Source: Faecalicoccus acidiformans (GTDB lineage: Bacteria > Bacillota_I > Bacilli_A > Erysipelotrichales > Erysipelotrichaceae). From it: a stretch of DNA of 64,000 nt. Location: NCBI RefSeq assembly GCF_014202635.1, contig NZ_JACHHD010000001.1:124001-188000 (forward strand). The letters run 5' to 3'. Both the position numbers and the translations under genes were made by a program. Position 1 is the first letter of the stretch. Every line of letters starts with the position of its first letter. A model generated the notes under the pieces. The model was not told the origin of the DNA, did not search any database, and saw only the letters and a program-made list of their open reading frames with translations. Shown in pieces: positions 6,855-23,539 of the stretch.

Positions 6855-7838
6855 TCATTTTTTTTTGAATTTATTATATGTGTTAGCTAACTGTCCACAA
6901 GCCGCGTTAATCTCTCTGCCATGAGAAACTCTCATAGTAACTTCAAGTCCTGCTTGCTCTAATTGATGTTTGAATGCAACTATTTCCCGTTTCTGTGGTG
7001 CTTTAATTCTTGAATTGCTTGTTGGGTTGTATTGTAACACGTTAATCATAACTTTTTTGCCCCGAAACCATTTTGCAAGTTGTCTTACATCTGAGGGCCG
7101 GTCATTTATACCCGGTAAAAGCAAATACGCAAAGACAATTTTGCGATTATGCCTTTCAGAATAGGATAAGGCTTGCTTAACAACATCTTCAATAGCATAT
7201 ATGCGCATGTGAGGAATAATACGATTTCTTGCAGATTGTGTTGCTGCGTGTAAAGATATTGTCAACTGAATTTTAAGATGTTCCTCGCGCAATTTTTTTA
7301 ATTGATCGACCGGACCAACTGTTGATATGGTAATGCCGTCGGTTGGAAAGTTGAGCCCATATCTATCTCGGAGAATATGGATTGCTTTTATCAAGTTGTC
7401 ATAATTGAATAAAGGCTCTCCCATACCCATAAAAACGATACGGTTTACTTTTCGACGCAACAATATAATCTGTTGTACGATTTCTGACGATGTTAGATTA
7501 CGAACAAAGCCATTTCGCCCGGACTCACAAAAAATACAACCAACAGGACAACCGACTTGTGTGCTCACGCAAACAGTTCCACCATCTCGCCGCTTGATAA
7601 AAACCGTTTCAATGTATTTGTTGTCTTTCAGTTCGTAAACATACTTTTCAGTATCACTGCTTTTGCAAATATTTTTTACCAACATTGATAGATTTTTTTT
7701 GCGTGGTAATTGCTTATATAATTCTTCATATAAGGCTTTTGCTTCATTCTCGCCAATAACTTCCGACATTTCTTTGTAAGTAAATCCGTATGGATCATTC
7801 CGTACTTCCGCAGGCGTATATTTAGGTAAACGTTTCAT
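6855..7838 (-). CDS. RlmN/Cfr-family radical-SAM 23S rRNA methyltransferase (divergent)
   Basis: A 327-residue radical-SAM enzyme. The iron-sulfur motif CPVGCIFC is near residue 98-105, followed by FMGMGEPL (SAM binding) near 140. The C-terminal EINAACGQL has the cysteine used by RlmN and Cfr for methyl transfer. Family members methylate A2503 of 23S rRNA at C2 (RlmN) or C8 (Cfr, giving resistance to several peptidyl-transferase drugs). Sequence alone does not decide which carbon is used. Against housekeeping RlmN: it is AT-rich cargo in an ICE, has a drug-type attenuator leader and follows a KTR gene. It may be a new resistance enzyme or a variant RlmN. Confidence 0.85.
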   Translation of the reverse strand: MKRLPKYTPAEVRNDPYGFTYKEMSEVIGENEAKALYEELYKQLPRKKNLSMLVKNICKSSDTEKYVYELKDNKYIETVFIKRRDGGTVCVSTQVGCPVGCIFCESGRNGFVRNLTSSEIVQQIILLRRKVNRIVFMGMGEPLFNYDNLIKAIHILRDRYGLNFPTDGITISTVGPVDQLKKLREEHLKIQLTISLHAATQSARNRIIPHMRIYAIEDVVKQALSYSERHNRKIVFAYLLLPGINDRPSDVRQLAKWFRGKKVMINVLQYNPTSNSRIKAPQKREIVAFKHQLEQAGLEVTMRVSHGREINAACGQLANTYNKFKKK

Positions 7839-8345: not shown

Positions 8346-8438
8346 TACACAACAGGAAGTATTTAACCTAATGATATGAATTGTGTGGACATATCCAAAA
8401 AGAAAGGTGAACTGTAAAATGTAACAGGGTGAATGAAA

Positions 8439-8795
8439 ATGGCAAAAAGACCCGTACCATTGTACGACTTTAAGGCTTTCGGGGCAGCTATAAAAGCCGC
8501 GAGAAATGAATACGGCGAGAGCCGCAAAAAGGTAAGCGACGAGTTATATATTTCCCCGCGCTACCTTGCGAATATCGAGAACAAGGGACAACAGCCGAGT
8601 TTACAGGTATTCTATGACCTTGTAACCCGGTATCATATTTCGGTAGATCAATTTTTCTTCCCGAACAGCAATGCGGAGAAATCCACCGGGCGGCGGCAGC
8701 TTGACGCGCTGCTGGACGGTATGAGCGATAAGGGCATACGGATTGTAACCGCAACGGCAAAGGAAATAGCGGAAGTAGAAAAGGCGGAGGACTAA
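8439..8795 (+). CDS. XRE-type helix-turn-helix regulator of the ICE
   Basis: A 118-residue protein with an XRE helix-turn-helix (FGAAIKAARNEYGESRKKVS ... ISPRYLANIENKGQQPS) and a short helical tail. The ATG at 8439 is nine bases after AGGG; an ATG two codons earlier is too close to it. It is transcribed towards mobC and divergently from the methyltransferase operon, and is followed by its own terminator. This type of regulator usually controls mobilization or excision genes in CTn elements. Confidence 0.82.
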   Translation: MAKRPVPLYDFKAFGAAIKAARNEYGESRKKVSDELYISPRYLANIENKGQQPSLQVFYDLVTRYHISVDQFFFPNSNAEKSTGRRQLDALLDGMSDKGIRIVTATAKEIAEVEKAED

Positions 8796-8818
8796 CCTCT
8801 CTCATAAGGGAAGTGCAG

Positions 8819-8851
8819 GATTGCAGCGCATGGCGACTGCAATCTTTTTTT
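8819..8851 (+). terminator. Rho-independent terminator after the XRE gene
   Basis: GATTGCAG / CTGCAATC arms with a 10-base loop, followed by seven T. It separates the XRE gene from the mobC-relaxase unit. Confidence 0.85.
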
Positions 8852-8922
8852 ACGTTCAAAATCAAGATAGCACGCAACAAATATCGCCTTTCGGTAGGGG
8901 TATGGAGTAGATAGCAAGCACA

Positions 8923-9010
8923 GCAAGCGAGTACCCGCTTGCGATTTTTGGCTTTAGGGAACCCTCCCCCTAAACCCGAAAAATGCTTGTTGGGAACATC
9001 CCAAACCCTG
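8923..9010 (+). other. Candidate oriT of the outer ICE
   Basis: Directly upstream of mobC are three inverted repeats: GCAAGCG/CGCTTGC (8923-8942), TTTAGGG/CCCTAAA (8953-8974) and GTTGGGA/TCCCAAAC (8989-9005). The last is followed by ACCCTG. IME 1 has the same TTGGG...CCCAAACCCTG arrangement upstream of its own mobC at 17016-17045. Position and shared motif suggest origins of transfer; the nick site is not known. Confidence 0.5.
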
Positions 9011-9035
9011 ATACGAAAAGAGGCGAGATACCACG

Positions 9036-9365
9036 ATGGCAAACCGAAAACGAAATATCCAGGTGAAGTTCTATGTGACCGCCGAGGAAAAGGAACTGAT
9101 GGAACAGAAGATGGCCCAGCTCCAGACAAAGCGGATCGGCGCCTACCTGCGGAAGATGGCGATCGACGGATATATCATCCAGGTGGACACCAGGGACATT
9201 AAGGAGATGAACAAACTTCTGTCCGCCATTGGCCGGAACATCAATCAGATTGCCAAGCGAGTCAACGCCGGAGGCCCCACCTATCAGGCCGACATGGAGG
9301 AAATCCGGGAAAGGCTGGATCAGATATGGCAGTTACAAAGACGCATCCTATTAAGTCAACGCTGA
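9036..9365 (+). CDS. mobC: MobC-type relaxosome accessory protein
   Basis: A 109-residue protein with a ribbon-helix-helix-like N-terminus (IQVKFYVTAEEKELME) and the MobC signature LLSAIGRNINQIAKRVNAGG near residues 62-81. MobC proteins bind oriT and help the relaxase nick it. The frame overlaps the relaxase start by 40 bases, so the two genes are coupled. RBS GAGGCGAG is upstream. The gene is intact, although its relaxase partner is truncated. Confidence 0.88.
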   Translation: MANRKRNIQVKFYVTAEEKELMEQKMAQLQTKRIGAYLRKMAIDGYIIQVDTRDIKEMNKLLSAIGRNINQIAKRVNAGGPTYQADMEEIRERLDQIWQLQRRILLSQR

Positions 9366-10040
9366 AAGCTGCGATTGACTATATCTGCAATCCTGACAAG
9401 ACGGACGGGAAGATGTTGGTGTCCTCCTTCGGCTGCGCCGCCGAGACCGCCGACATTGAATTTGAATGGACACGCCGCCATGCCATTGACAAAGGTACGC
9501 ACCTGGGCCGCCACCTGATCCAAGCCTTTGAACCTGGGGAGGTCACGCCAGAGGAAGCCCACCGGATCGGCATGGAACTGGCACGGGAAGTCCTGGGCGA
9601 CAAATATGAATTTGTCCTCACCACTCACATTGACAAGGATCACGTCCATAATCACCTGATTTTCAATGCGGTCAGCTTCACCGACCACAAGCACTACCAT
9701 TCCAACAAGCGCAGCTATCACGAGATACGCCGGGCCAGCGACCGGCTGTGCAAAGAACACGGCTTGTCCGTCATCGTCCCTGGTCGGGATAAGGGCAAGA
9801 GCTACATTGAGCATCAGGCCGCACAGAACGGCACCAGCTACAAGGCAAAGCTGAAAGCCGCCATCGACCGGCTGATTCCCGTATCCTCCAGCCTGGAAGA
9901 TTTGCTTGCCCGGTTGCAGCGGGAAGGGTACGAAATCAAGCGGGGAAAATATATCTCCGCCAGGGCGCCGGACCAGGAGAGGTTCACCCGGCTCAAAACC
10001 CTGGGCGCCGATTACACGGAAGAAGCCGTTGTCTCCCGCA
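9326..10040 (+). pseudogene. Truncated relaxase of the outer ICE (MobA, Relaxase family)
   Basis: The first roughly 238 codons of a MOB-P type relaxase. The metal-binding motif HIDKDHVHNHLIF and an N-terminal tyrosine near residue 18 (DYICNP) are present. At about 10036 the sequence switches, in frame, to an inverted copy of the repA 3' end and then into antisense trbL, giving a chimeric 442-codon frame ending at 10654. The helical C-terminal part of a normal relaxase is absent. The nicking domain could still fold, but full function is doubtful. Confidence 0.8.
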
Positions 10041-10235
10041 TTGCCGGGGACGACTATCCGGCGGAGGTGGTCAAATCCCGCTTCCTGAAGCTGAACAGTT
10101 CCCACATCGAGTATGTGCTGGACCGGATGCGGGACAACACCACCTATGTCCGCAACATCAAGAAATATCTGCTGGCTGCCCTGTATAACGCCCCGGCCAC
10201 CATTGACAGCTACTATGCGTCCCTGGTGAACCACG
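10036..10235 (+). repeat. 200-bp inverted copy of the repA 3' end
   Basis: This segment is an exact reverse complement of 33749-33948; I compared it in blocks and found no mismatch. It encodes 'AGDDYPAEVV ... SLVNH', the RepA C-terminus, in frame with the relaxase. It sits exactly between truncated relaxase and truncated trbL, so it is filler at a deletion junction. Confidence 0.95.
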
Positions 10236-10711
10236 CTCCAGTCGGCAAGCTGGGTCTCCAGATCGCCCACCACGCCGGAGATGTCGATGCCCGCGTCCGA
10301 GATAATGACCCCCGCCGACTGACTGACCACATTCTGCGCCACATCGAACACCGCCATGACGATGTTCCAGGTGTTCGTGACGATCAGCACCGCGCAGAAG
10401 GTTTTGAAAATCCACTTGAAGAAAATCCAGGTGTCGAAGTCGTGGAGGTTGTTCTTCTCGATAATAAGCTGAATCAGCTCATAGCACATGACAAAGGTGA
10501 GAATAATGCCCGCGATGGGGACGATCACCGTCTCCGAGAGGTTGCGGATCATGTTGAAGATGCTGCTGTTCCAGGCGGCGGGCGTCATGCCGACCTCCCC
10601 GGCGATCTCGCCCACCTTTGTGTTCAGGGTATCAAACATCCCGGTCAGGTTTGAAATGATACCGTCAATGAGCAGTTCCTTGAACCACTCCTGGATCATA
10701 TCCAATATCAA
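10236..10711 (-). pseudogene. Truncated TrbL/VirB6-type conjugation membrane protein
   Basis: The N-terminal 158 codons of the polytopic inner-membrane transfer protein that follows Maff2 in Tn1549-like ICEs. There is an amphipathic start, then hydrophobic segments near residues 60-80 and 98-115. A TTG start at 10711 has AGGAGG nine bases upstream. The frame ends abruptly at the inverted repA copy, after LETQLADW, and runs on as an artificial fusion to 9356. The C-terminal membrane segments are lost. Confidence 0.8.
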
Positions 10712-10778: not shown

Positions 10779-10880
10779 TTAGGTGGTGGACAGCAGACCG
10801 GACAGCAGAGGGATCAGGGTGATGCCGATGAGGGCAACGCCGCCGCCCGCCATGAGCTGCTTGATGCCCTGGCTTTTTGC
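10779..10880 (-). pseudogene. 3' part of maff2, separated by IME 1
   Basis: Thirty-three codons plus TAA, reading AKSQGIKQLMAGGGVALIG ... as in the second membrane segment of Maff2. It starts at the GC core of IME 1. Joined to 23414-23539 it gives a complete 75-codon frame with no missing or extra base. Confidence 0.88.
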
Positions 10881-10897
10881 TTATGTGCGATAAAGAA
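10879..10897. other. Left end of IME 1 (att half-site)
   Basis: The GC core (10879-10880) is followed inward by TTATGTGCGATAAAGAA. Read inward, the opposite end (23413 to 23395) is GC then TCATGTGTCATAAAGAA, so 14 of 17 positions match as an inverted repeat. This is the half-site pattern expected of a serine recombinase. Confidence 0.8.
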
Positions 10898-10966
10898 GTA
10901 ATAGAAGTGTAAAAAATTTTGCCGTTCCTATCCGGCACTTGGCCATTGTGTCGGATAGGTCGGGCG

Positions 10967-12616
<1,650 letters not shown>

Positions 12617-12697
12617 CTATTCCGTAGCTTTATTGTACCACGGAATAGCGGGGGCTGTATAGCGGCAAAAGTGTCAAATCTGCTTCTTTATGGTTTG

Positions 12698-12886
12698 TCA
12701 AATTGCCGGTTTTTGTGTAGCAGCGGCTTCCGCTTCCAGTACCCGCGCCATTTTGTCGGCGGCGGTGGTGGTAGTGTCTTTCTTGAAATAGCCGGACACG
12801 ACAAGGACGGAATTGCCCATGCGGATTTCCGTCACGCAGTCGGGGCGGCGGGCGGTGCGGGTGTCGTGCTGCTTGTTATCTGTCAT
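12698..12886 (-). CDS. tnpW: TnpW-like transposon-encoded protein (IME 1)
   Basis: A 62-residue protein with PDCVTEIRMGNSVLVVSGYF, matching the TnpW core (I-G-N-x-x-x-V-x-x-x-F). The ATG at 12886 has AAAGGAG before it; a longer frame to 12991 lies inside the upstream gene. It lies between the recombinase and the DnaC-like gene. Confidence 0.75.
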   Translation of the reverse strand: MTDNKQHDTRTARRPDCVTEIRMGNSVLVVSGYFKKDTTTTAADKMARVLEAEAAATQKPAI

Positions 12887-12900
12887 AGGCAATACTCCTT

Positions 12901-13743
12901 TCAGTCGGTAATCAGTTTCTTCATGCTCTCCATTTTCCGCTGCGCGGCTTCCTGCCGGAAGTTGTCGCCGGTAAAGCGTACCGGGACGCACATGGAAAGC
13001 AGGCGGTCATAAATCCGGGAATGGGCGGTGTCCTCCGGGTTGTGCAGGTCGTCCAGCGTGAGGTTGGTCGTGACGATCAGCGGCTTGCCGCTGCGGTAAC
13101 GGCTGTCAATCACATTGAAAACCTGTTCCAGCCCGTACTCGGTGCCGCGCTCCATGCCGAAGTCGTCAATGATAAGCAGCGGATAGCGGCAAAGGCGGGA
13201 AATGTACTCGTTGCGGTTCTCAAAGCTGGCGGCAAGGTCGTTGAGGATAAGGGCAAAATTCGTCATGTGGACGGGGATTTCTTTCTCCATAAGGGCGTTT
13301 GCGATACAGCCCGCAAGGTAGCTTTTCCCGGTTCCCACGCCGCCCCAGAACAGGCAGCCGATATTGTCGGTTCGCATATCCTCCCAGTGTTCCACATACC
13401 GGCGGGCAATCCCTGTCTGCGGGTTCCTGCCGTTGTCGTTCTCAAAAGTCCAGTCCCGCATGGTGGGGTCGGTAAAGCCCCGGCGTTTCAGTTCCTCTAC
13501 GGTGTCAAGGTGCCTGCGCCGCTTCTCGGCGGTCTCCCGTTCCTCGCGGGCGGCTCTCTGGCAGTCGCACTCTGCCGGGTGGCGGTCGCGCCCAAAGATA
13601 GCGGCCTTGTCCGGCGCAAAATAGGCTTCTTTCGGCTTGCGGCACTTGCCGCAGTAGAGTAAACCGTCCTCGCCAGTGTAGTCCTCCGGCTCCGGGGTGG
13701 CAGCCGTCATATTCTCCAAAACAGCGTTGATTTCGTTCTTCAT
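12901..13743 (-). CDS. DnaC/IstB-like ATP-binding helicase loader
   Basis: A 280-residue AAA+ protein with an N-terminal zinc-binding segment (YCGKCRKPK ... CDCQ, residues 28-65), Walker A GGVGTGKSYL near 133, Walker B LLIIDDFGME near 188 and a sensor TTNLT near 222. This type loads a replicative helicase at an element's origin. Start ATG at 13743 follows AAGGAGGG. It overlaps the stop of the upstream RepA-like gene by four bases (ATGA), so the pair is a replication operon for the excised circle. Confidence 0.85.
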   Translation of the reverse strand: MKNEINAVLENMTAATPEPEDYTGEDGLLYCGKCRKPKEAYFAPDKAAIFGRDRHPAECDCQRAAREERETAEKRRRHLDTVEELKRRGFTDPTMRDWTFENDNGRNPQTGIARRYVEHWEDMRTDNIGCLFWGGVGTGKSYLAGCIANALMEKEIPVHMTNFALILNDLAASFENRNEYISRLCRYPLLIIDDFGMERGTEYGLEQVFNVIDSRYRSGKPLIVTTNLTLDDLHNPEDTAHSRIYDRLLSMCVPVRFTGDNFRQEAAQRKMESMKKLITD

Positions 13744-14471
13744 AAACTCTCGCCCTCCTTGCATGAGTAGTCAGGGATGCCCTTTTTCGGGGCGCCCTTT
13801 TTGTCGTTCCCCGCCCATATCCGAAGGGCGGCGGCATAGTTCTGGTAGCTTTTCCCGCTGGCGGCAAGGTAGCGGCTCATTTCCTCGATGAACCGTTCCA
13901 GCCTGTCGGGGTACTCTGCCTGCAACTCGTCGTATTCGGTCTGTGACAGAAAAATATTCTGGTATCGGCCATAGGGCGCGGGCGGCTCCCCACTCACTCC
14001 CTTTGTTTGGTTCTCTGTAAGGTTGTTTATAGTAGTTTGGTTAGGGGACGGTTTTCCGACCATCATAAGGTCGGTTTTCTGACCATCAGTTGGTCGGTTT
14101 TCCGGCTCTATGAGGGTCGGTTTTCCGGCCATCAGTTGGTCGGAAAACTGTACCTGTGGCACACGCGGCACTTTCACATACAGTCGGTTCGGTGCGGAGA
14201 AGCCGCCCCGTTCCCGTTCCAGCAGCCCCGCCGTGTCCAGTTCATTCAGCGCCCCCTTTATGGTGGTGCTGCCTTTATCCAGTATTTCGGCTATCTCCGC
14301 GATGGGATAGATAATATAAATCCTGCCCTCGCCGTCCTGCCACTTGTTCTTCTGGGAGAGGGTGGAGCGGTCTAACAGCAGCGCATAGAGCAGCTTGGCG
14401 GTCTGGGAAATCTCCATTTTCAGCAGGAAACGGGGATAGGGCAGATAGGCGGGCAGCTTCGTGTCTGCCAT
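13740..14471 (-). CDS. RepA-like replication initiator of IME 1
   Basis: A protein of about 243 residues. The N-terminal winged-helix domain (AKLLYALLLDRSTLSQKNKW, then STTIKGALNELDTAGLLERE) resembles plasmid RepA_N and DnaD-like initiators. The middle carries repetitive NRPTDGQKTDLMMVGKP-type sequence, encoded by 23-bp iterons. The C-terminal part is helical. The start is uncertain: the ATG at 14471 is used here, but GGAGG lies 23 bases upstream, so an unusual start closer to it is possible. It acts with the DnaC-like loader downstream. Confidence 0.75.
   Translation of the reverse strand: MADTKLPAYLPYPRFLLKMEISQTAKLLYALLLDRSTLSQKNKWQDGEGRIYIIYPIAEIAEILDKGSTTIKGALNELDTAGLLERERGGFSAPNRLYVKVPRVPQVQFSDQLMAGKPTLIEPENRPTDGQKTDLMMVGKPSPNQTTINNLTENQTKGVSGEPPAPYGRYQNIFLSQTEYDELQAEYPDRLERFIEEMSRYLAASGKSYQNYAAALRIWAGNDKKGAPKKGIPDYSCKEGESL
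14046..14143 (-). repeat. Four tandem 23-bp iterons inside the repA-like gene
   Basis: Repeat units start at 14046, 14069, 14092 and 14115, each GG(T/A)CGGTTTTC followed by a variable 12-base tail; a fifth unit begins at 14138 and is partial. The 23-bp period is not a multiple of three, so the conservation is at DNA level. Iterons inside the initiator gene are typical of RepA_N plasmids and mark a likely replication origin. Confidence 0.8.
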
Positions 14472-14606
14472 GATATAATCAGCGATAGGATCACCTCCCT
14501 GTGTTCGGGTTGATTTTGGCGGTTTGTACGCATTTAGGACGGCGTTTCCGGGGGAAAAGGATAAATGTATCGCGTACCCTTTGACACCCACGAAAAAAGC
14601 CTTGAT

Positions 14607-14993
14607 TTATGCGGGTTTGAAAGGCTCTAAAGCGTGACATTTCTGCCTTTGTTTCCGCTTTCGCTCGGCGGCTTTGATTTTCTTCATGCGTCCGGCGCAG
14701 CCGGGGCAGTATTTTCCCCGGTTGGATTTGGGGACAAAGGCCGCGCCGCAGACGGCGCACCGTTTCCGGCTCCCCCGGTACAAGAGGGCTGCGGCCAGCT
14801 CCCCGTCAAGGGGCAGGACAGCCACACGGAACCAGCGGCACATGAGGGAAAAGGAAATGCTCTGGACGCATACGCAAGGCTCCCCGTCGTCCAACAGCAG
14901 GCAGTTCCCCTCGTCGTAGTTACAGCACTCATGCACCAGCCGCCGCGCCCGCCGGTGCTGGCGGTAGTCCATTCTCGGCAGCTTATCGCTCAT
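14607..14993 (-). CDS. Cysteine-rich VLP-domain protein
   Basis: A 128-residue protein with an N-terminal region rich in Cys (HECCNYDEGNCLLLDDGEPC), which contains the C-x-L-L-D-x-G-E-x-C pattern of the Cys_rich_VLP family. A second zinc ribbon lies near residues 80-100 (RCAVCGAAFV ... YCPGCAGR) before a basic tail. Start ATG at 14993 overlaps the relaxase stop by 11 bases and is preceded by AAAGGAG. Such genes commonly follow relaxase genes in IMEs; the function is unknown. Confidence 0.75.
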   Translation of the reverse strand: MSDKLPRMDYRQHRRARRLVHECCNYDEGNCLLLDDGEPCVCVQSISFSLMCRWFRVAVLPLDGELAAALLYRGSRKRCAVCGAAFVPKSNRGKYCPGCAGRMKKIKAAERKRKQRQKCHALEPFKPA

Positions 14994-16617
14994 GGCTCTG
15001 CTCCTTTCTGCGGTGCGGCTCGCTCCGGCGCAAAATCTGGTCGATGTTCCGCTTGACGGTCTGCAACTCCGTGTACCGCTGCTTCTGTTCGTGGTAGGTG
15101 TTATACAGGCTGGATTTCTTGGAAACAAGCTGCTCGATCTCGTCCTGCAACGCTTTCCGGGCGGGCAGCTTGGTAATGCCATGCTCCCGGAAATACCGGG
15201 CGGCTGCGTCGGCTATGATAAAATCGCTCTCATGTGCCTGCCGGTATGCGGCGCGGGCTTTCTCGGATTTCTGCGCTTTCAGCCCGTCGCGGGCGGGCTT
15301 GGTCTTGGCGTAGGCAAGTACCTGCCGCTGCAACTCCTTTTTCCCTTGCAGCTTCGTTTCCAGTGCTTTCAGCTTGCCGCTGGTCTGGCGCATTTCCTGA
15401 TAGGCGGTATCAACGGCGGCTTCCAACTGCTCCGGGGAAGTGAAGCCGTATTCCTGATACACATTCAGCGTCGCGGCCATTTGTTTGAGGTTGTGCATGG
15501 TCGCCCAGCGTTCATAGCCCCGGCCTTTGCCCTCGGCTTTCTTCTGCTCAATGTCCACAAGCCGCTGCACACCGTCCTGTTTCGGGGCGGTTTGAGGGGC
15601 TTTTGTGGGCTGTATGCCGGTTTTCCCACGCCGGGGGTATTCGAGTATGGCCGCGGCCTTTTCTGTGGCTCTGGCGGCGTTCTGCTCCAAAACGGCAAGG
15701 ACAGCGGCGCGGTCAAAGTCGTCACCCAGCTTCCGGGCGGTAATGGGCTTTGTCCTGTCCGGCGTAAGGTAGGAAAGCCGCCCCCGGCTCTCCTTGACGG
15801 CCACGCCCTCCCGCAGCAGCAGAGAGGAAAAGTCCTCGAATGAGGCCGCTGTAGACAGCGCGGCGCGTATGGTCTGCCGCAGCTTCTCCTTGTTCGTTTC
15901 AAACTTGGTCTGCCGGGGCGTGATACCGCCTGCAATCATGGGGGCGTTCTGCCTGTCCAGTGCGGCCTGTCCCTTTTTCTGCGCCCAATACTCCCGGTCT
16001 GTGACGCGGTTCTTGCTGCCGTTCAAGAGGTCGATTTGGTAAAGCCCCTCCCGGTGGCACATCTCCATGACTTCGGACTTGAAGTAGCGCAAGGCCGCGT
16101 CGGTACAGCGGTGCTTGCAACCGGCTTTCGTGTCGGCTGGCCTGTCCATGTAGGGCAGGAACGGCACTTCCTCAATCCGCAGGCTGTTAATGACGATATG
16201 CACATGGATATTTCCGCTGTGGTTATGCCCGTCCGGGTGGGTGCATACAAGGGCTTGGTGGCCGGGGAAATGCTCGGCGCAAAACTTCTCGCCCAACTCC
16301 TGCGCCCGGTCTACGGTCAAGCCGTTGTCCGGGCCGTCCCGTGGGTCAAAGCTGATGATATAGTGGTGGCTTTTCACATCTTCCCGCCGCTGGTTCTTCT
16401 CATAGCGGAGATTTGCTCGCATACAGGCAACGGCAAAATCCTCCCCGCCGCAGTTCAGCGTGGACAGCCGGTAGTCCTCGCGGGGGATAAGCCTGCCGGT
16501 TTCATCAAGGACGGGTTTCATGGTAAACTCGTCATGCTCAAAAAGCAGGTATTGCTCGGCGGCTCCGTAGTCGGCGTTTTTAGAGTTGATATGCTTGAGT
16601 GTTGCCAACTGCGTCAC
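14983..16617 (-). CDS. Relaxase of IME 1 (Relaxase/mobilization nuclease family)
   Basis: A 544-residue relaxase. The N-terminal nuclease domain shows Tyr near residue 17 (NADYGAAEQYL), a SHHYIISF strand near 84 and the metal site GNIHVHIVIN near 135. The C-terminal part is long, helical and basic. It should nick oriT and pilot the strand through a helper ICE's channel. The gene overlaps mobC by 38 bases and is full length, unlike the relaxase of the surrounding ICE. Confidence 0.9.
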   Translation of the reverse strand: MTQLATLKHINSKNADYGAAEQYLLFEHDEFTMKPVLDETGRLIPREDYRLSTLNCGGEDFAVACMRANLRYEKNQRREDVKSHHYIISFDPRDGPDNGLTVDRAQELGEKFCAEHFPGHQALVCTHPDGHNHSGNIHVHIVINSLRIEEVPFLPYMDRPADTKAGCKHRCTDAALRYFKSEVMEMCHREGLYQIDLLNGSKNRVTDREYWAQKKGQAALDRQNAPMIAGGITPRQTKFETNKEKLRQTIRAALSTAASFEDFSSLLLREGVAVKESRGRLSYLTPDRTKPITARKLGDDFDRAAVLAVLEQNAARATEKAAAILEYPRRGKTGIQPTKAPQTAPKQDGVQRLVDIEQKKAEGKGRGYERWATMHNLKQMAATLNVYQEYGFTSPEQLEAAVDTAYQEMRQTSGKLKALETKLQGKKELQRQVLAYAKTKPARDGLKAQKSEKARAAYRQAHESDFIIADAAARYFREHGITKLPARKALQDEIEQLVSKKSSLYNTYHEQKQRYTELQTVKRNIDQILRRSEPHRRKEQSHER

Positions 16618-16978
16618 CTACTTTCTTGAGGACTTCATACTTGAGGGCGGCAAGGTCGGCTATGGCGGCGCGTACCTCACCGGACAGCGCATTGTAGGGC
16701 GCGCCGTACTCATTCAGATACCGGGCTATCTGGTTGAGGTTGCCGCCGATCCTGCCGTACTCGGCTGTGAGTTTCCCGACAGCGGAAAGCAGCTCGTCAT
16801 TGACCGCTGACACATGGATAACGGGGCGTATGGCGGTGCGCCGTATCGCCTGCCGGAGAAATTCGGACTGGCTGATACCATAGGGCGCAAGCCGCGCTGT
16901 GAAGTCGGCATACTCATCTTCGGACAGCCGGGTTTTCACAACGCGGCTGCGGTGGGGCGTGTTGTATTTCTTTCGCAT
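16580..16978 (-). CDS. mobC: MobC relaxosome accessory protein (IME 1)
   Basis: A 132-residue protein: N-terminal ribbon-helix-helix (VVKTRLSEDEYADF), then the MobC signature YGRIGGNLNQIARYLNEYG near residues 74-92. The ATG at 16978 follows AAAGGAGG by eight bases. It is first in the mobC-relaxase-VLP unit and lies immediately downstream of the candidate oriT. Confidence 0.88.
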   Translation of the reverse strand: MRKKYNTPHRSRVVKTRLSEDEYADFTARLAPYGISQSEFLRQAIRRTAIRPVIHVSAVNDELLSAVGKLTAEYGRIGGNLNQIARYLNEYGAPYNALSGEVRAAIADLAALKYEVLKKVGDAVGNTQAYQL

Positions 16979-17015
16979 GGTGTGACCTCCTTTCTCGCCC
17001 GTAAGGGCGCATGAG

Positions 17016-17045
17016 CAGGGTTTGGGGAAGGCACTCCCCAACAAG
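17016..17045 (-). other. Candidate oriT core of IME 1
   Basis: On the minus strand CTTGTTGGGG...CCCCAAACCCTG, an inverted repeat followed by ACCCTG, 38 bases before mobC. The same layout occurs before the outer ICE's mobC (8986-9010). The remaining 17046-17510 stretch holds no gene; it has several repeats of the type gATTTTGGCA/TTTGCCAAA that may belong to the same transfer or replication region. Confidence 0.5.
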
Positions 17046-17510
17046 TTTCCCGCGAGGGGCAAAACTGCAGAATTGCGGATTTTGGCACCGTGGTAGAAAC
17101 TTGCTCTTAGTAAGCCGCAGACTGCCCCTGTCCGGGCTTTTCCGTACATAGAGCGAACGGGGCGGGGCTTTCAGCCCGCTGTGCGCGGTCTTTTTTTTCT
17201 TTCGCCAAAGATACATTCAAAAGGCCGCCAGCTACCCGCTGTCCGGGGATTTTTCAAATTTTCTTTTGCCTTAGTAATCCGGGAAACAGGATTTTGGCAA
17301 CCTACGGGGCAGAGAATTTTTCCTTTCACTCCCTACAACACTGCGTTTTGAAATTTGCCAAACGGAGCAGGCAGCTTTTTCTGGCTTCACCTACCTACTA
17401 CGGGTGACTTTGCGATTTTGCCAAATGGACAACAAAAAAAGCAGCAAATCTTTTTCAGACTTACTGCTTTCACTGGCCGCTGGTGGGCGGCTGGTATTCA
17501 GTTTTGGGGC

Positions 17511-17708
17511 TTATCGGTCAAAGCGAAACTTGAATAGTGCGGAGATTAGCTGCTGCTTCACATATTCCTCAACCTCGGCGTTAACCTGACCGTGTACTTT
17601 GGAAAAGTAGCGGATATATCCGGCATAGTGGGAAAGGACGGTGTCGATTGCGTCCGGGTCGCCCTCATGGGCTTTGACGATTGTTTCATAGGGGAGAAGT
17701 TTACTCAT
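17511..17708 (-). CDS. Small conjugative-transposon helix-turn-helix protein (IME 1)
   Basis: A 65-residue HTH_16-type protein (YETIVKAHEGDPDAIDTVL, then HYAGYI and a C-terminal VKQQLISALFKF). It is the counterpart of 5718-5960 in the outer ICE. The ATG at 17708 overlaps the sigma gene end by eight bases. Confidence 0.75.
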   Translation of the reverse strand: MSKLLPYETIVKAHEGDPDAIDTVLSHYAGYIRYFSKVHGQVNAEVEEYVKQQLISALFKFRFDR

Positions 17709-18123
17709 GGTCTTTTCCCTCCATGAGCCGCCGTAGCCGCTGCAAGGCAAGCTGGATATGCCGCCCCGCTGTGCTGCGTGTCCGGCCAATATGTACGCCG
17801 ATCACTCGCTGCGGCTGGCGCAGGAAATAGTAACGGAAAATCTCTTCCTGTGTCTGCTCCGGCAAGAGGGCAAGGGCGGCGGCAAGTTCCGCATGGTACA
17901 GAACGGCGGTCTGGCCGCAGGCGGTAAAAAGATATTCTTCAAGCTGCTCCGGTTCGGCAAGCTGGACAAACTTCTCATTCATCAGATAGTCAAGAGAAAC
18001 TTCCCGTTCCCACCTCCGGCGCAGCTTTAAGATTATATCTATGGCTGCGTGACGAATGACAATCTTGCAAAAGGCATTGAATGTGTACTGGATATGCACT
18101 TTGTAGGCTTCATCTTCGGTCAT
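17701..18123 (-). CDS. Sigma-70-family regulator of IME 1
   Basis: A 140-residue protein. The N-terminal motif TEDEAYKVHIQYTFNAFCKI is characteristic of element-encoded sigma-like regulators. The C-terminal region-4 helix-turn-helix is QTQEEIFRYYFLRQ ... IGRTRSTAGRHIQLAL. AGGA lies seven bases before the ATG at 18123; an earlier in-frame ATG at 18165 is less well placed. A degraded paralogue lies at 19464-19843, and the small HTH gene follows by overlap. Confidence 0.78.
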   Translation of the reverse strand: MTEDEAYKVHIQYTFNAFCKIVIRHAAIDIILKLRRRWEREVSLDYLMNEKFVQLAEPEQLEEYLFTACGQTAVLYHAELAAALALLPEQTQEEIFRYYFLRQPQRVIGVHIGRTRSTAGRHIQLALQRLRRLMEGKDHE

Positions 18124-18215
18124 GGAAATTCCTGTTTTTTGGCGAGCAATTTTCCCCATTTTCATCGTTATGATTCCCTATAATCAGCACTGTATATTCA
18201 TGCAGTTTTACAGAA

Positions 18216-18299
18216 TATCAATACATTACCGTAAAATCAAGGACGCATTCGCGCCGCTATCGCGGTTGAAATCCTTGATTTTACGGTAATGCATCGATA
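18216..18299. repeat. 28-bp inverted repeat upstream of the sigma gene
   Basis: Arms 18216-18243 and 18272-18299 match at 26 of 28 positions around a 28-base loop. It lies 93 bases upstream of the sigma gene start, with no coding frame. It may be an attenuator, a protein-binding cruciform or a footprint of a lost insertion. The 18300-18427 remainder holds nothing recognisable. Confidence 0.75.
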
Positions 18300-18427
18300 A
18301 TGGTAATCAAGGCATGAATGAGTAATTATAATTATCTGACAATGATAATTTTAAGGAGGTGCCGCGCCAATTATGGGGAATTGACCTCGCTCATAAACAA
18401 ATTCCCCCTCTCTGAATAATAGTGCGG

Positions 18428-18576
18428 GGCGGCAGCACTCCTTGCTGTCGCCCCTTGATTGCCTATCTGCAAAGGCGGGCGGGGCTGTCAACGGCGGCGC
18501 ATATGCGCCGTTCATCTTGACTGTTGACTGGCTCGGCTGGCTTTGCCATTTGAGTGTAATTGCTTATTCTTTTTTT
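18428..18576. repeat. 149-bp direct repeat, copy A
   Basis: A direct repeat of 19911-20059, about 93% identical by eye and of identical length. Both contain the perfect palindrome GGCGCATATGCGCC. The copies flank the SpoU methyltransferase and a broken sigma gene, so this cargo came in by, or could be lost by, recombination between them. Confidence 0.85.
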
Positions 18577-18648
18577 ATTTGCAGACTTTTGAGGTAGAAC
18601 GCCTGCTCCTCCCTTTTCTCTGGCTCACTCTCAAAAGGGTTATGCTGT

Positions 18649-19467
18649 CTAATTCATTCGTTGTCTTACTATTTCATACATCATTATAGATGCAGCACAA
18701 CTGACATTGAAAGAACTGGCATAGGAATCTTCAGCCATAGGAATCGTACATAAAACATCACAATATTCCTTAAATGCCTTATTTAATCCCATGGTTTCAT
18801 TTCCCATCATTAACATAACCGGGGTTTTCAAGTCCTCATGATAGATAGGCTTTTCGTGGTGGGCTGTTGTGCCTATGATCTTAAAGCCAGGGTATTTTAT
18901 TCTAAGGCTTTCAACGAATTTATATAAATCCTCATTGTGAATGATTCGAATCACCGGAAGATTGAAAAAAGAACCCATCGCCGAAACAATTACATCAGGC
19001 TCATACAAATCAACCGCATGTCCAGTAATTATCAACATATCTACTCCCAACGCATCACATGAACGTATCATCGTACCTAAATTTCCTTTATTAGAGGGCC
19101 TGTCAAATAACACAATAAATGGATTGGAAGATAACGCAACATTTTCTAACCTGTCTTCCCTCATTTCAATAATAGCCAATAATTCAGAAGTTTCTTCTTT
19201 TCCACTTAATTCCTTTAGCAACTGTGCCGTAAGAGTATAATTGACTTCTGTTTTTACTGTTTCTATCATATGTTTTGCCCAGCCTGACAGATTATTCTTG
19301 TCATAAATAAAAGAAATAATCTTCCAGTTATTTTTAACCGCTTCATTTAAACTTCTTACGCCTTCAACAATAAATTGATTATATTTATATCTTTTATTTC
19401 GATTATGCTTCAATACTTCAAATCTCTGGTAATCATTATTTTTATTTAATATAGAAACAACTTTCAT
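18649..19467 (-). CDS. SpoU/TrmH-family rRNA 2'-O-methyltransferase
   Basis: A 272-residue SPOUT enzyme. An N-terminal substrate-binding domain (FIVEGVRSLNEAV near 32-44) is followed by the SpoU domain with its three motifs: FDRPSNKGNLGTMIRSCDALG split around 122-142, MLMMGNETMGLN near 218 and CTIPMAEDSYASSFNVSCA near 238. The family methylates ribose 2'-OH groups of rRNA or tRNA with SAM. Members such as Tsr and AviRb give resistance to thiostrepton or avilamycin. An IME location and AT-rich codon use suggest acquired resistance; the target nucleotide is unknown. Confidence 0.85.
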   Translation of the reverse strand: MKVVSILNKNNDYQRFEVLKHNRNKRYKYNQFIVEGVRSLNEAVKNNWKIISFIYDKNNLSGWAKHMIETVKTEVNYTLTAQLLKELSGKEETSELLAIIEMREDRLENVALSSNPFIVLFDRPSNKGNLGTMIRSCDALGVDMLIITGHAVDLYEPDVIVSAMGSFFNLPVIRIIHNEDLYKFVESLRIKYPGFKIIGTTAHHEKPIYHEDLKTPVMLMMGNETMGLNKAFKEYCDVLCTIPMAEDSYASSFNVSCAASIMMYEIVRQRMN

Positions 19468-19843
19468 TTCAATACCTGCCTCATCATACTTTGGTTTTCG
19501 AATTTTTCACCCATTGTAAGCCCATTTTTGAAAAAATAAGGGAAAATGATTTCCCGGTTTTTCTGTGGCAGGGATAACAGGACGGCGGCAAGTTTTCCAT
19601 TGGTGAGGATAACTGCCTGACCGCATATCGTTATAGGGTGTTCTTCATGGGGTGCTTCAAAATATTCGTCTGTTGTGCCTAAAGGGTAAAACTTTTCTTC
19701 TGTGAGGTATTCAAGGGATATTTCTTTTTGCCGCCGTCTGCTCCTGTCACGCCATGCGTTGATAGCCGCATAGTGTATGACGGTCTTGCAAAGCCATTGA
19801 ACGTGTACATGATGTGTTCTTTGTATGCTTCTGTGCAAGGCAT
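19464..19843 (-). pseudogene. Frameshifted, 3'-truncated sigma-like gene
   Basis: A paralogue of 17701-18123. It starts TEAYKEHIMYTFNGF in one frame; loss of one T in a TTTT run (GGCTTTGCAAG instead of GGCTTTTGCAAG, near 19793) shifts the frame, after which CKTVIHYAAINA and EISLEYLTEEKF continue. The expected C-terminal helix-turn-helix is missing, replaced by an unrelated tail ending at the start of the methyltransferase. It appears inactivated by both events. Confidence 0.75.
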
Positions 19844-19910
19844 AGATGATTCCCCCTTTCTCCCACATAGGGCGTTGTATGGTTGACGGGTTTCATTTAT
19901 AATATCAGAG

Positions 19911-20059
19911 GGCGGCAGCACCCCTTGCTGTCGCCCCTTGATTGCCTACCAGCAAAGGCGGGCGGGGCTGTCAACAGCGGCGCATATGCGCCGTTTATCT
20001 TGACTGCCCGCTGGCTCGGCTGGCTTTCCTATTTGAGTGTAATTGCTTATTCTTTTTTT
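19911..20059. repeat. 149-bp direct repeat, copy B
   Basis: Partner of 18428-18576. It overlaps the last codons of the AraC-type gene (stop at 20047), so copy A also carries a short remnant of that gene end. It lies directly upstream of the broken sigma gene. Confidence 0.85.
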
Positions 20060-20913
20060 GTTACTGGAATCCAAATTTCACTGTATGCGTAGTTGGGCTT
20101 TTTGTCGTCCATTTTTGTAAAAGAGAAAGAAAACGGCTCTGCCAGTTCATAATCTGCCGTCATAAACCATTCGGAGTAGATTCTTGCCATTGTATCCTGC
20201 AAAGTAAACGGGAAGATTCCTTCATTTGGAAAAACTGCCCACGTATGAGCTTTAACAGGAAATGTGTCCAGATTACTGCTAATGTCATTTTTAGTTGTTA
20301 AAACTCCAATTAAATGCGTTAATTCACCAGCTTCTTCAAGAAAGTTCGTATCTGATTCATAGGAAACATTTACAGTTTCATATGGCTCAATGTTTTGCAA
20401 CCGGTGCATTTCTTCTTTCTGTTCCTGTGTTATGCTTTGTGCCAGTTCCAAAATAGCGTTGTTTACTCCCTCATATTGTAACGGCACTCGTTTACTTACA
20501 CCTGCAAACGTAAAAGCAGGTTTTTCAACAATTTTATATTCCATTAAAGTTCCTCCCTTCATAGTTACAACAAATTGTAACTTTTGGCATGATTTACATT
20601 GTTTCAACTTTGCGACTTGTGACGGTAAGATACCGCTCCATTTTTTAAAGGCACGTGTAAATCCGTCTACGGATTGATACCCATATTGATAAGCGACATC
20701 TGTTACCTGCGCCCCCTGCAACAATTCTTTGTTAGCTTCTGAAAGTCGTCTGTTTTTTACATACTCATTCAGCGTCATATTGGTAAGCGCAAAAAATATT
20801 TTTCTAAAATGATAATCTGAAACATTTATATGCTCAGAAATCTTCTCAAGTAAAAACTCGTCCTCCAGGTGCGCTTCAATATAGTCCATCGCGTCATTCA
20901 ATTTCTTTAACAC
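20047..20913 (-). CDS. AraC-family regulator with GyrI-like effector-binding domain
   Basis: A 288-residue protein. The N-terminal AraC DNA-binding domain (LEKISEHINVSDYHFRKIFF and VTDVAYQYGYQSVDGFTRAF) occupies residues about 1-100. A GyrI-like small-molecule-binding domain (VEKPAFTFAGVSKRVPL ... YSEIWIPV) fills 130-288. The GTG at 20913 with GGAGGGG upstream is the likely start. It lies downstream of tet on the same strand, 190 bases after the tet stop. Domain architecture resembles drug-sensing Rob/BmrR-like proteins. Whether it controls tet is unknown. Confidence 0.85.
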   Translation of the reverse strand: MLKKLNDAMDYIEAHLEDEFLLEKISEHINVSDYHFRKIFFALTNMTLNEYVKNRRLSEANKELLQGAQVTDVAYQYGYQSVDGFTRAFKKWSGILPSQVAKLKQCKSCQKLQFVVTMKGGTLMEYKIVEKPAFTFAGVSKRVPLQYEGVNNAILELAQSITQEQKEEMHRLQNIEPYETVNVSYESDTNFLEEAGELTHLIGVLTTKNDISSNLDTFPVKAHTWAVFPNEGIFPFTLQDTMARIYSEWFMTADYELAEPFSFSFTKMDDKKPNYAYSEIWIPVTKKE

Positions 20914-21103
20914 ATTGCCCCTCCTTCCGAATAAGAATATCACAATTTAGAAAGATATGTTCGACATTAGCATACAAAATTAGTCGGGTTATAAATAAAG
21001 GCCGTTTGCTCAATATAAGTTTACACAAAACCGACTTGAAAACAAAACTAACATAGACTCTCCTTATATTCAAAGATTTTTATCCGTGATAACGCACAAA
21101 ATA

Positions 21104-23023
21104 TTACGTTATTTTCTGAAACATATGCCGAACCTTATCTAAACGGCTGTTAGGACGGCGTGGCTGCAATACAGGCTCCCCGGAAATTTCTTGGTACCCT
21201 TTTAATTCGGTAAGGCAGACGCTTCTCCCATTTGTATAAAAATTTAAATCATTCCTATATTCGCCGATGCAGCGGGCGGGGATTTCTCCCGTAAAAATAA
21301 CTTCATCATTTTTAAGCAAGGTTGATTCAATCACTGCACAATACTTCGGTGCGTCATTATAAGCCCGTGAAATATATTCCTGCGGTGCAAAAAGGGTAAA
21401 GGAAAGGTATGGTTCCAATAATTGTGTTCCTGCTCTTTTCAATGCCTGTTCTAACACGATAGGAGCAAGGGAACGAAAATCTGCGGGGGTACTAACTGGA
21501 CTGTAATAAACTCCATAGTCAAAACAAATTTCACAATCTGTCACTTCCCAACCGTATAAGCCTTGCTCCATTCCATAACGCACCCCTTCCATAACGGCAT
21601 TTTGAAAACTTTGGTTTAAATAGCCGAGAGATACTTTGCTTTTAAACCGGGTTCCACTTCCGGCAGGAAGTGGCGTTACAGTTAAGCCAATGGATGCCCA
21701 AAACGGATTCGGCGGCACTTCAATATGAATCGTGTAACTGGCTGTTTTTAATGGCCTTTCCAGATAAATGACCGTAGGTTCTTTCACATTTATGTTCACA
21801 TGGTATCGCTCTACTAACAGAGAGCATACAACCTCTAACTGGACTTTTCCTAAAAAAGAAATGATGATTTCATGCGTTATCGTATCCACATAGTAATGCA
21901 ACAGCGGATCTGTATCTGCAATTTCCGTCAGGGCATTCAGCAGGAGGTCTCTTTGTTCCTGATTTTGCGGCTCCACCGTCGTCCGAAGCAAAGGAATCGG
22001 ATTTTTTTCCCATGCCTTGCGCGGCAAAAGTTCTACATTTCCGAGAGTATCATTCAGCTTCAGAGTGTCATTGGTCAAAATAACAATTTCTCCGCAACAG
22101 GCTGTGTCCGCCGGTATAATCTCTCCGTTTGACGGAATCCTCATTTCTGTGATTTTTAGTTTTTGATTTTGGGGCAGGAGAATCGTATCCCGTAAATGAA
22201 GTGTCCCGCTGTATAACCGCAAATAAACGAGCCGCTTTTTCTGGTCTGTGTACTCGATTTTAAAAACGCTTCCGCATAGCTCGGATTGATCGTTGTCCGC
22301 ACCAGAAGTAAATGTTTCTGCAATCACTTCAATCAGCTTTTCAGTTCCGATATTGTTCTTTGCACTCCCATGATAAATAGGAAACAGGGAACCGTTTTGC
22401 ATTCTTCTGCATTTCTCCCTCTGTAAATCTTGTATTTTCAAAGGTTCCCCCGCAATATATTTTTCCAAAAGTTCATCATTTCCAGCAATAATAGAATCCC
22501 ATTTTTCTATATCCTCAATGTCTGTCAGAGACACTTCCGGAGTGAGCGAAACATCTTGCATAACCATGACATCATCAGAAAGTTTTTCTCTGATATTTTG
22601 ATAAACGCTCTGTAAGTCAATGCCCTCCTGGTCTATCTTATTTACAAAAATAATCGTTGGGATTTTCATTTTCTGGAGCGCATGGAACAGTACCCGTGTT
22701 TGTGCCTGCACGCCGTCCTTTGCGGAAACTACTAAAATTGCTCCGTCAAGAACAGCAAGTGAGCGATATACTTCCGCCAAAAAGTCCATATGGCCGGGGG
22801 TATCGACAATATTGATCTTATAATTCTTCCAGCCGAAAGAAGTGACGGCCGTTTGAATGGTAATCCCACGCTGGCGTTCCAACAGCATGGTGTCTGTCCG
22901 CGTTGTTCCCTTATCTACACTCCCTAATTCCGGAACGGCTCCGCTGGTATAGAGCAGGCTTTCTGTCAAAGTCGTTTTTCCTGCGTCTACATGAGCAAGA
23001 ATGCCGATATTGATTATTTTCAT
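21104..23023 (-). CDS. tet: Tetracycline resistance ribosomal protection protein, Tet(O/W/32) class
   Basis: A 639-residue translational GTPase related to EF-G that removes tetracycline from the ribosome. GTPase motifs AHVDAGKTT (near 10), DTPGH (near 74) and NKID (near 128) are present; domain IV ([26 protein letters not shown]) and the C-terminal [15 protein letters not shown] are typical. The start is the ATG at 23023 (MKIINIG), 639 residues being the length of Tet(O) and Tet(W); an in-frame ATG five codons earlier overlaps the Shine-Dalgarno site. By eye it falls between Tet(O), Tet(W) and Tet(32), so the allele is not assigned. Confidence 0.95.
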
Positions 23024-23062
23024 GTGTTTGTCCTCCATTCAGCCCCCAAAGGGCATAAAAAT

Positions 23063-23093
23063 CCCCAGCAGCAAAATACTTTTACCGCTGGGG
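23063..23093 (-). promoter_or_regulatory. Hairpin in the tet leader next to the leader peptide stop
   Basis: CCCCAGC / GCTGGGG arms with a 17-base loop, overlapping the last codons of a 12-residue leader peptide and lying 40 bases before the tet start. Ribosome position on the peptide would decide whether it forms. Confidence 0.6.
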
Positions 23094-23120
23094 ATATAGC
23101 GAATAGACATACACATACAT
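23082..23120 (-). CDS. Leader peptide of the tet gene (12 residues)
   Basis: ATG to TAA encoding MYVYVYSLYPQR in the tet leader, ending inside the hairpin at 23063-23093. The short frame has no strong ribosome-binding site, so translation is uncertain. tet(M) and tet(W) leaders are known to carry such peptides in attenuation control. Confidence 0.45.
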   Translation of the reverse strand: MYVYVYSLYPQR

Positions 23121-23177
23121 ACAACGCACTGCAAGCAGCGGTCGCTCTTTTGATATGTCAAATATATAAGGCAAAAG

Positions 23178-23270
23178 TATTCTTAAAAAGGGTACAAAAA
23201 ACTAAGCCCCTTGCAAGGGACGGTTACAATTCTTTGTTCCCACTATTTGATTATAGTTAATTAAGAATAC
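23178..23270 (-). promoter_or_regulatory. tet attenuator: terminator and long-range inverted repeat
   Basis: On the minus strand CCCTTGCAAGGGG then TTAGTTTTTT forms a terminator at 23194-23220. The flanking decamers GTATTCTTAA (23178-23187) and TTAAGAATAC (23261-23270) are perfect inverted repeats. The segment strongly resembles the leader upstream of tet(M) in Tn916, where tetracycline-slowed translation permits read-through. Confidence 0.75.
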
Positions 23271-23309
23271 CTTGCCGCATATTTTTAACTCCTTACTTGG
23301 AATAGAAAT

Positions 23310-23315
23310 ATTATA
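23310..23315 (-). promoter_or_regulatory. Extended -10 promoter of tet
   Basis: On the minus strand TGCTATAAT, an extended -10. No good -35 is visible at the expected distance (T-rich instead). It lies about 290 bases upstream of the tet start and upstream of the attenuator, giving a long leader RNA. The 23316-23394 stretch up to the IME end holds nothing else. Confidence 0.65.
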
Positions 23316-23394
23316 GCATATCGGCATTGAAAAAGAAAGTCCTGAAACAAAATTTACGGAATAGTAGGCTGCTGTCTATCAATCTCTTGTGTGT

Positions 23395-23413
23395 TTCTTT
23401 ATGACACATGAGC
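23395..23413. other. Right end of IME 1 (att half-site)
   Basis: Read inward on the minus strand: GC core then TCATGTGTCATAAAGAA, the imperfect mirror of the left end at 10879-10897. The core interrupts codon 43 of maff2. Confidence 0.8.
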
Positions 23414-23539
23414 ATTGGAGGCAGGGTTGTCCTGGCCGTAACCTTCCAGAAGGTTGATGCCGCCCCACACGCACAGGCCGCCGCCCAGGGCGATGACCAG
23501 AGTCTGCAAAACGTCGATAGCGTTAGTAAAAAAGCTCAT
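23414..23539 (-). pseudogene. 5' part of maff2, separated by IME 1
   Basis: Forty-two codons starting ATG at 23539, encoding a hydrophobic segment (VLQTLVIALGGGLCVWGG) and INLLEGYG, as in Maff2 of Tn1549-like ICEs. The frame runs four residues into the IME before a stop at 23399. Maff2 is a small two-segment membrane protein of the transfer apparatus. Confidence 0.88.

What the first reader, a model, noticed from the sequence alone, without database searches (positions are those of the whole stretch)
14046..14143. 23-bp iterons inside a replication initiator gene of an IME
Four full tandem units with a period not divisible by three show selection on DNA, not protein. With a RepA-like and a DnaC-like gene this indicates that the excised IME replicates autonomously, a property only recently recognised for integrative elements.
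Basis: partly seen in the sequence, partly recalled or inferred. Interest (0 to 1): 0.6.

Follow-up and report, generated by a model that had tools for sequence, protein, structure and literature searches.

The report
Plasmid-type origin inside IME initiator gene
A tetracycline-resistance mobile element of gut bacteria carries, inside its own replication-initiator gene, a row of four 23-bp binding sites that look like a plasmid replication origin, so its excised circle can probably copy itself; the arrangement is known from plasmids, but I found no description of it for this element.

Summary
The repeats are real: four 23-bp units (14046-14137) plus an inverted half-unit, inside a RepA_N initiator gene (13740-14471, minus strand). 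Each unit is a near-palindrome (GGTCGG-AAAA-CCGACC) plus a 7-bp spacer, read in shifting frames; 0 of 2000 synonymous shuffles reproduce them. Of 34 distinct full-length RepA_N homologues (28-100% identity), 33 have a significant array (period 22, 23, 45 or 46) in the same linker, with clade-specific sequence. This is the anatomy of pSK41-type RepA_N plasmids, whose origin lies within rep. The carrier is a 12.5-kb IME (10881-23411) inserted in maff2 of a Tn1549-type ICE; it matches the IME_Rho_tet family (2026), whose paper's main text does not mention RepA, DnaC or replication. In two relatives the same backbone (about 90-98% identical beside the breaks) carries a different, phage-type initiator with its own dyads next to a 97-99% identical DnaC: initiator and sites are exchanged together. 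An in-gene origin is well supported; autonomous replication of the excised circle is inferred, not shown. No plasmid or phage record holds this backbone, and the one available coverage comparison (51 vs 49) shows no extra copies. New member of a known kind.

The parts
14046..14137 (-). Four 23-bp iterons, each a GGTCGG-AAAA-CCGACC dyad (coding strand) plus 7-bp spacer: 14046-14068, 14069-14091, 14092-14114, 14115-14137
14138..14154 (+). Flanking half-unit (GGTCGGAAAACTGTACC) in inverted orientation
13990..14045 (.). A+T-richer tract beside the array (CTAACCAAACTACTATAAACAACC on the coding strand), alignable in homologues down to 68% identity; candidate unwinding region (inferred)
13740..14471 (-). 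repA, 243 aa: RepA_N winged-helix N-terminal domain (about residues 15-99), linker predicted disordered (104-167) which the iterons encode, C-terminal helical domain (177-222)
12901..13764 (-). dnaC-like AAA+ helicase-loader gene, overlapping the 3' end of repA
12698..12991 (-). TnpW-like small gene (PF14202)
10967..12586 (-). Large serine recombinase of the IME
14607..15182 (-). Cys-rich VLP domain gene (ORF as listed; true start not determined)
14983..16617 (-). MobA/VirD2-type relaxase
16580..17149 (-). NikA/MobC-like relaxosome gene
21104..23038 (-). Tetracycline resistance ribosomal protection protein (cargo; TetM/TetW/TetO/TetS family)
10881..23411 (.). Whole IME; GC at both junctions (10879-10880 and 23412-23413), imperfect terminal inverted repeats (15/21)
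23408..23539 (-). 5' part of the split maff2 target gene of the host ICE (residues 1-44)
10782..10883 (-). 3' part of the split maff2 target gene (residues 42-75)

Best explanation
The repeats are the initiator-binding sites (iterons) of a RepA_N-type theta replication origin placed, as in pSK41, inside the initiator gene, in the stretch that encodes the flexible linker between the DNA-binding and the recruiting domain. Proposed mechanism: when the IME is excised as a circle by its serine recombinase and RepA is made, the winged-helix N-terminal domain binds the dyads at two-helical-turn spacing; the adjacent A+T-richer tract opens; and the C-terminal domain, with the neighbouring element-encoded DnaC-like loader, brings in the host helicase and primase, so that the circle is copied during mobilisation or before re-integration. 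Shown here: gene identity, array, conservation as DNA, near-universality in full-length homologues, exchange of initiator and repeats together. Inferred: binding, opening, helicase loading, and timing with excision.
For: RepA_N domain and solved relatives. Array not explained by the protein sequence (0/2000 shuffles); third codon positions constrained in the cores. Of 34 distinct full-length RepA_N homologue ORFs, 33 have a 22/23/45/46-bp array in the linker that exceeds all 20 of their synonymous shuffles (19 of the 34 are close relatives of the window gene, which match it unit by unit). Across nine diverse homologues the N- and C-terminal domains align but the linker protein does not, and the linker is predicted disordered. 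DnaC-like gene overlapping repA. Natural exchange: in L144/L145 an IME with about 90-98% identical DNA beside the breaks (88-96.5% over the longer flanks) has repA replaced from about 13800 to 14500 by a Phage_rep_org_N initiator with two GGACA-N2-TGTCC dyads, beside a 97-99% identical DnaC. pSK41: origin centrally within rep, NTD binds four Rep boxes; pPR9: ~500-bp NTD+origin exchange, replicates and is compatible with pSK41 (PMC5703833).
Against: No direct evidence of replication or of extra copies. The backbone has no near match among 72,556 plasmid or 50,697 phage records. In one assembly with two copies, the contig coverages in the record titles are 51.0 (8.8-kb contig) and 48.6 (46-kb contig): no surplus, though excision may be rare. 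One full-length homologue (L023) and the HTH_36-type initiator L134 stay within shuffle range, and a staphylococcal plasmid RepA_N control (L164, sharing a replicon cluster with pSK41) also did not exceed its shuffles by this score, so the score neither proves nor excludes an origin in single cases. The C-terminal domain could not be linked to DnaD with the low-confidence model.
Confidence: 0.77

Rival explanations
1. The dyads are operators: RepA binds inside its own gene mainly to repress its transcription or that of the downstream dnaC-tnpW-recombinase genes, and no replication occurs.
For: The winged-helix NTD resembles transcription regulators (weak GntR and CodY hits); NTD-only RepA_N proteins (137-154 aa) exist in the same genomes, and short RepA_N proteins of streptococcal IMEs were suggested to serve another function (PMC5357655).
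Against: The full-length protein keeps a conserved C-terminal domain and a DnaC partner, which a repressor does not need; NTD-only genes have no array; homologous plasmids use the same layout as an origin (PMC5703833). Dual use is possible.
Confidence: 0.12
2. A plasmid-type origin that is vestigial in this IME: inherited from an ancestral plasmid and no longer used.
For: No extrachromosomal record; some relatives have truncated initiators (L124 C-terminal part only, L131 remnant).
Against: repA is open and its iterons intact in many copies in different genera, with third-position constraint in the cores.
Confidence: 0.08
3. Protein-level repeat: the linker repeats for structural reasons and the DNA follows.
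For: Repetitive linkers are common in proteins; in the Phage_rep_org type the dyads are often 24 or 27 bp apart, multiples of three.
Against: Period 23 shifts the frame each time; the encoded residues differ and are not conserved between homologues; synonymous shuffles do not reproduce it.
Confidence: 0.01

Closest known systems
pSK41-type RepA_N theta replicon (Staphylococcus)
   Same: RepA_N winged-helix NTD; repeated binding sites centrally within rep, encoding a linker; separate C-terminal domain (PMC5703833)
   Different: Here on an integrated IME, with an element-encoded DnaC-like loader overlapping repA and a shorter protein (243 vs 319 aa); antisense-RNA control not looked for
IME_Rho_tet (PMC12904643, Feb 2026)
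   Same: Serine recombinase, relaxase, mobC, tet ribosomal protection gene, maff2 insertion, 3' boundary 86 bp beyond the recombinase stop (published range 81-90)
   Different: No structural difference found; its main text does not contain 'RepA', 'DnaC' or 'replication'
pPR9 / pUSA03 hybrid initiators
   Same: NTD and origin exchanged on a constant backbone for a phage-type NTD (PMC5703833)
   Different: There only ~500 bp with a >97% identical CTD; here almost the whole repA is exchanged, the CTD being only about 57% identical
Maff2-inserted IMEs and Tn6104 with replisome organizer plus DnaC (PMC5704250)
   Same: Serine-recombinase IMEs living in Tn5252-superfamily ICEs with phage-type replication genes
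   Different: The window element has a full-length RepA_N initiator instead of a replisome organizer
TnGBS1/2 and Tn1549/Tn5252 ICEs with RepA_N (PMC4701971)
   Same: RepA_N on an integrative element; replication of the excised form proposed or reported
   Different: Those are self-conjugative ICEs

Membership tests
RepA_N in-gene-origin replicon | RepA_N N-terminal winged-helix domain | tested here: met
   PF06970 above cut-off; PDB relatives by sequence and fold
RepA_N in-gene-origin replicon | Repeated sites centrally inside rep, in the linker-coding stretch | tested here: met
RepA_N in-gene-origin replicon | C-terminal domain DnaD-like, binding primase | tested here: inconclusive
   Three-helix CTD in a low-confidence model (pLDDT 56); no structure match for the CTD
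RepA_N in-gene-origin replicon | NTD binds the repeats | not testable with these tools
   Needs gel shift or footprint
RepA_N in-gene-origin replicon | Supports autonomous replication | not testable with these tools
   Only indirect: no plasmid record of this backbone
IME_Rho_tet | Relaxase, MobC-like gene, serine recombinase and tet RPP in one orientation | tested here: met
   all on the minus strand
IME_Rho_tet | 3' boundary 81-90 bp past the recombinase stop; terminal inverted repeats | tested here: met
   86 bp (10881 vs 10967); inverted repeats match at 15/21 positions (criterion)
IME_Rho_tet | Insertion in maff2 (most common site) | tested here: met
   maff2 split in the window, intact in relatives; 27 of 42 loci with a recognisable end abut a maff2 frame
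IME_Rho_tet | Direct sequence comparison with the R. hominis A2-183 reference | not tested
   Reference not fetched

The most novel reading that the evidence does not exclude
IME_Rho_tet elements are in effect integrative plasmids whose compatibility group is changed by swapping the initiator gene with its built-in iterons against a constant backbone with its DnaC loader, so that several tet-carrying IMEs can be copied side by side in one cell and spread across hosts.
Probability: 0.3. Interest if true: 0.65.

Novelty: new member of a known kind. Interest (0 to 1): 0.45.

Why it matters
The published account links 68% of tet(W) and about 88% of tet(32) genes screened to IME_Rho_tet and does not discuss how the excised element is maintained. 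A built-in plasmid-type origin would explain how the circle survives cell division and establishes in new hosts, and gives a direct test (circle copy number with and without repA). The initiator exchange also offers a natural series for studying which initiator recognises which sites.

Tried and rejected
Small 'Bacteriophage sp.' records with RepA_N hits (4-5 kb) were examined as possible free replicons: no terminal repeats, linear and unverified, and at least one (L169) is a piece of the same IME type. Plasmid pAPRE01 and an Aerococcus tenax plasmid carry RepA_N plus an ATP-binding protein with a 23-bp array, but within an ICE-like conjugation module, so they do not prove stand-alone use. I first took the swap boundary as 13985 (BLAST end); window-by-window identity moved it to about 13800, so the CTD is exchanged too. 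The iteron-vs-NTD distance correlation (rho 0.59) exceeded iteron-vs-CTD (0.45), but NTD and CTD distances are themselves correlated (0.48), so this is weak.

Full report
Observation. The array exists at the stated place. TRF gives 14049-14143, period 23, 4.1 copies. By eye the units start at 14046, 14069, 14092 and 14115, each GGTCGG-TTTT-CCGACC (imperfect) plus seven bases, followed by an inverted half-unit at 14138. The gene is on the minus strand, 13740-14471 (ATG start; the ORF is open to a GTG at 14591). Because 23 is not a multiple of three, the copies encode different residues. None of 2000 synonymous shuffles reaches the observed score.

The gene. Its N-terminal domain is RepA_N (6e-16). 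A profile of nine relatives finds the solved RepA_N domains 4PTA, 4PT7, 5KBJ and 4PQL, and a low-confidence AlphaFold model (pLDDT 56) still matches them by fold. The model shows a winged-helix domain, a disordered stretch 104-167 that contains the residues encoded by the iterons, and a short helical C-terminal domain.

Conservation. RepA occurs at 82-100% identity in the 80 loci kept from 104 relatives, mostly gut Bacillota. The close relatives keep four units at 23-bp spacing (one spacing is 24 in the 68% relative). Where the gene has diverged the cores change least: third codon positions differ at 1/22 core sites versus 60/213 elsewhere against the 82% relative. More distant full-length relatives (28-50% identity) have arrays of period 22, 23, 45 or 46 with different sequence; of 34 distinct full-length ORFs in all, 33 exceed all 20 of their synonymous shuffles and one (L023) does not. 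NTD-only genes of 137-154 aa have no array. Across nine diverse proteins both domains align while the linker does not.

The element. The IME runs from 10881 to 23411, with GC at both junctions, and splits a maff2 gene of a Tn1549-type ICE whose VirB6-like and VirD4-like genes lie on either side. Intact maff2 genes occur in relatives. Gene content, boundary distance (86 bp past the recombinase stop) and target match IME_Rho_tet (PMC12904643). The main text of that paper has no occurrence of RepA, DnaC or replication; its supplements were not read. [quoted passage not shown]

Initiator exchange. DnaC relatives were used to look at their upstream initiators. Most are RepA_N, but four with 75-99% identical DnaC (L125, L126, L129, L130) have another N-terminal domain, Phage_rep_org_N (PF09681; 1e-29 and 2e-31 for the two scanned; the other two by sequence likeness). 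More distant ones have HTH_36, and one has no Pfam hit. Two elements, L144 and L145 (the latter from the same genus as the window), keep the window backbone at about 90-98% identity up to about 13800; from there to about 14000 identity falls to 50-76%, then to chance level, and it recovers beyond 14500 (at once in L144, after about 14700 in L145). So the whole initiator except roughly its last 20 codons has been exchanged, including a CTD that is homologous but only about 57% identical. The exchanged type carries its own dyads, GGACA-N2-TGTCC, usually twice and 24-27 bp apart. Initiator and sites thus move as a unit, much as in pPR9 versus pSK41 (PMC5703833).

What is not shown. Nothing here demonstrates replication. 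The IME backbone is absent from the plasmid and phage collections. In the only genome where two contig coverages could be compared, both element-bearing contigs have about the same depth (51.0 and 48.6; record titles), consistent with a mostly integrated, single-copy state. Several genomes hold two or three copies with the same iteron type, which suggests that the origin is quiet while integrated (inference).

Judgement. The origin reading is likely; autonomous replication of the circle is plausible and testable, not shown. The literature places every component in known kinds: in-gene RepA_N origins on plasmids, RepA_N on ICEs, replisome organizer plus DnaC on maff2 IMEs, and this IME family itself. 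What appears unreported, within the open-access library searched, is the plasmid-type replicon of IME_Rho_tet and its exchange between members.

Noticed in passing
6855-7838 (-): Radical-SAM methyltransferase between the RlmN and Cfr families; scores below the curated cut-offs of both (277.6 vs 290 for RlmN; 199.5 vs 530 for Cfr). Possibly a divergent Cfr-like gene near mobile elements.
   Followed up: no
8433-10711: HTH, MobC-like and relaxase ORFs whose relaxase reading frame runs into the opposite-strand VirB6-like gene near 10160: looks like a second, truncated IME or mobilisation fragment joined to the ICE.
   Followed up: no
18649-19467 (-) and 29303-30136 (-): Two further methyltransferase-like genes, the first a SpoU/rRNA type inside the IME, the second a class I SAM type by eye; with the tet and Cfr-like genes they make a cluster of ribosome-related functions.
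   Followed up: no
L098 (Oxalobacter paraformigenes HOxBLS, 1.8-Mb scaffold): The same IME at 92% DNA identity in a record of a proteobacterium; the published survey covered Bacillota and Actinomycetota. Contamination was not excluded.
   Followed up: no
L001, L027, L028, L030, L033: RepA_N-only proteins of 137-154 aa without C-terminal domain and without in-gene repeats, common in the same genomes; role unknown.
   Followed up: partly
L168:1138-1295: Contig labelled phage with ParB-, RepA_N- and VirD4-like genes and about seven 23-bp units in its RepA_N gene, the longest array seen.
   Followed up: no
L037/L042, L035/L049, L045/L067, L048/L094/L107, L105/L109: Single genomes with two or three copies of the IME bearing the same iteron type.
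   Followed up: partly
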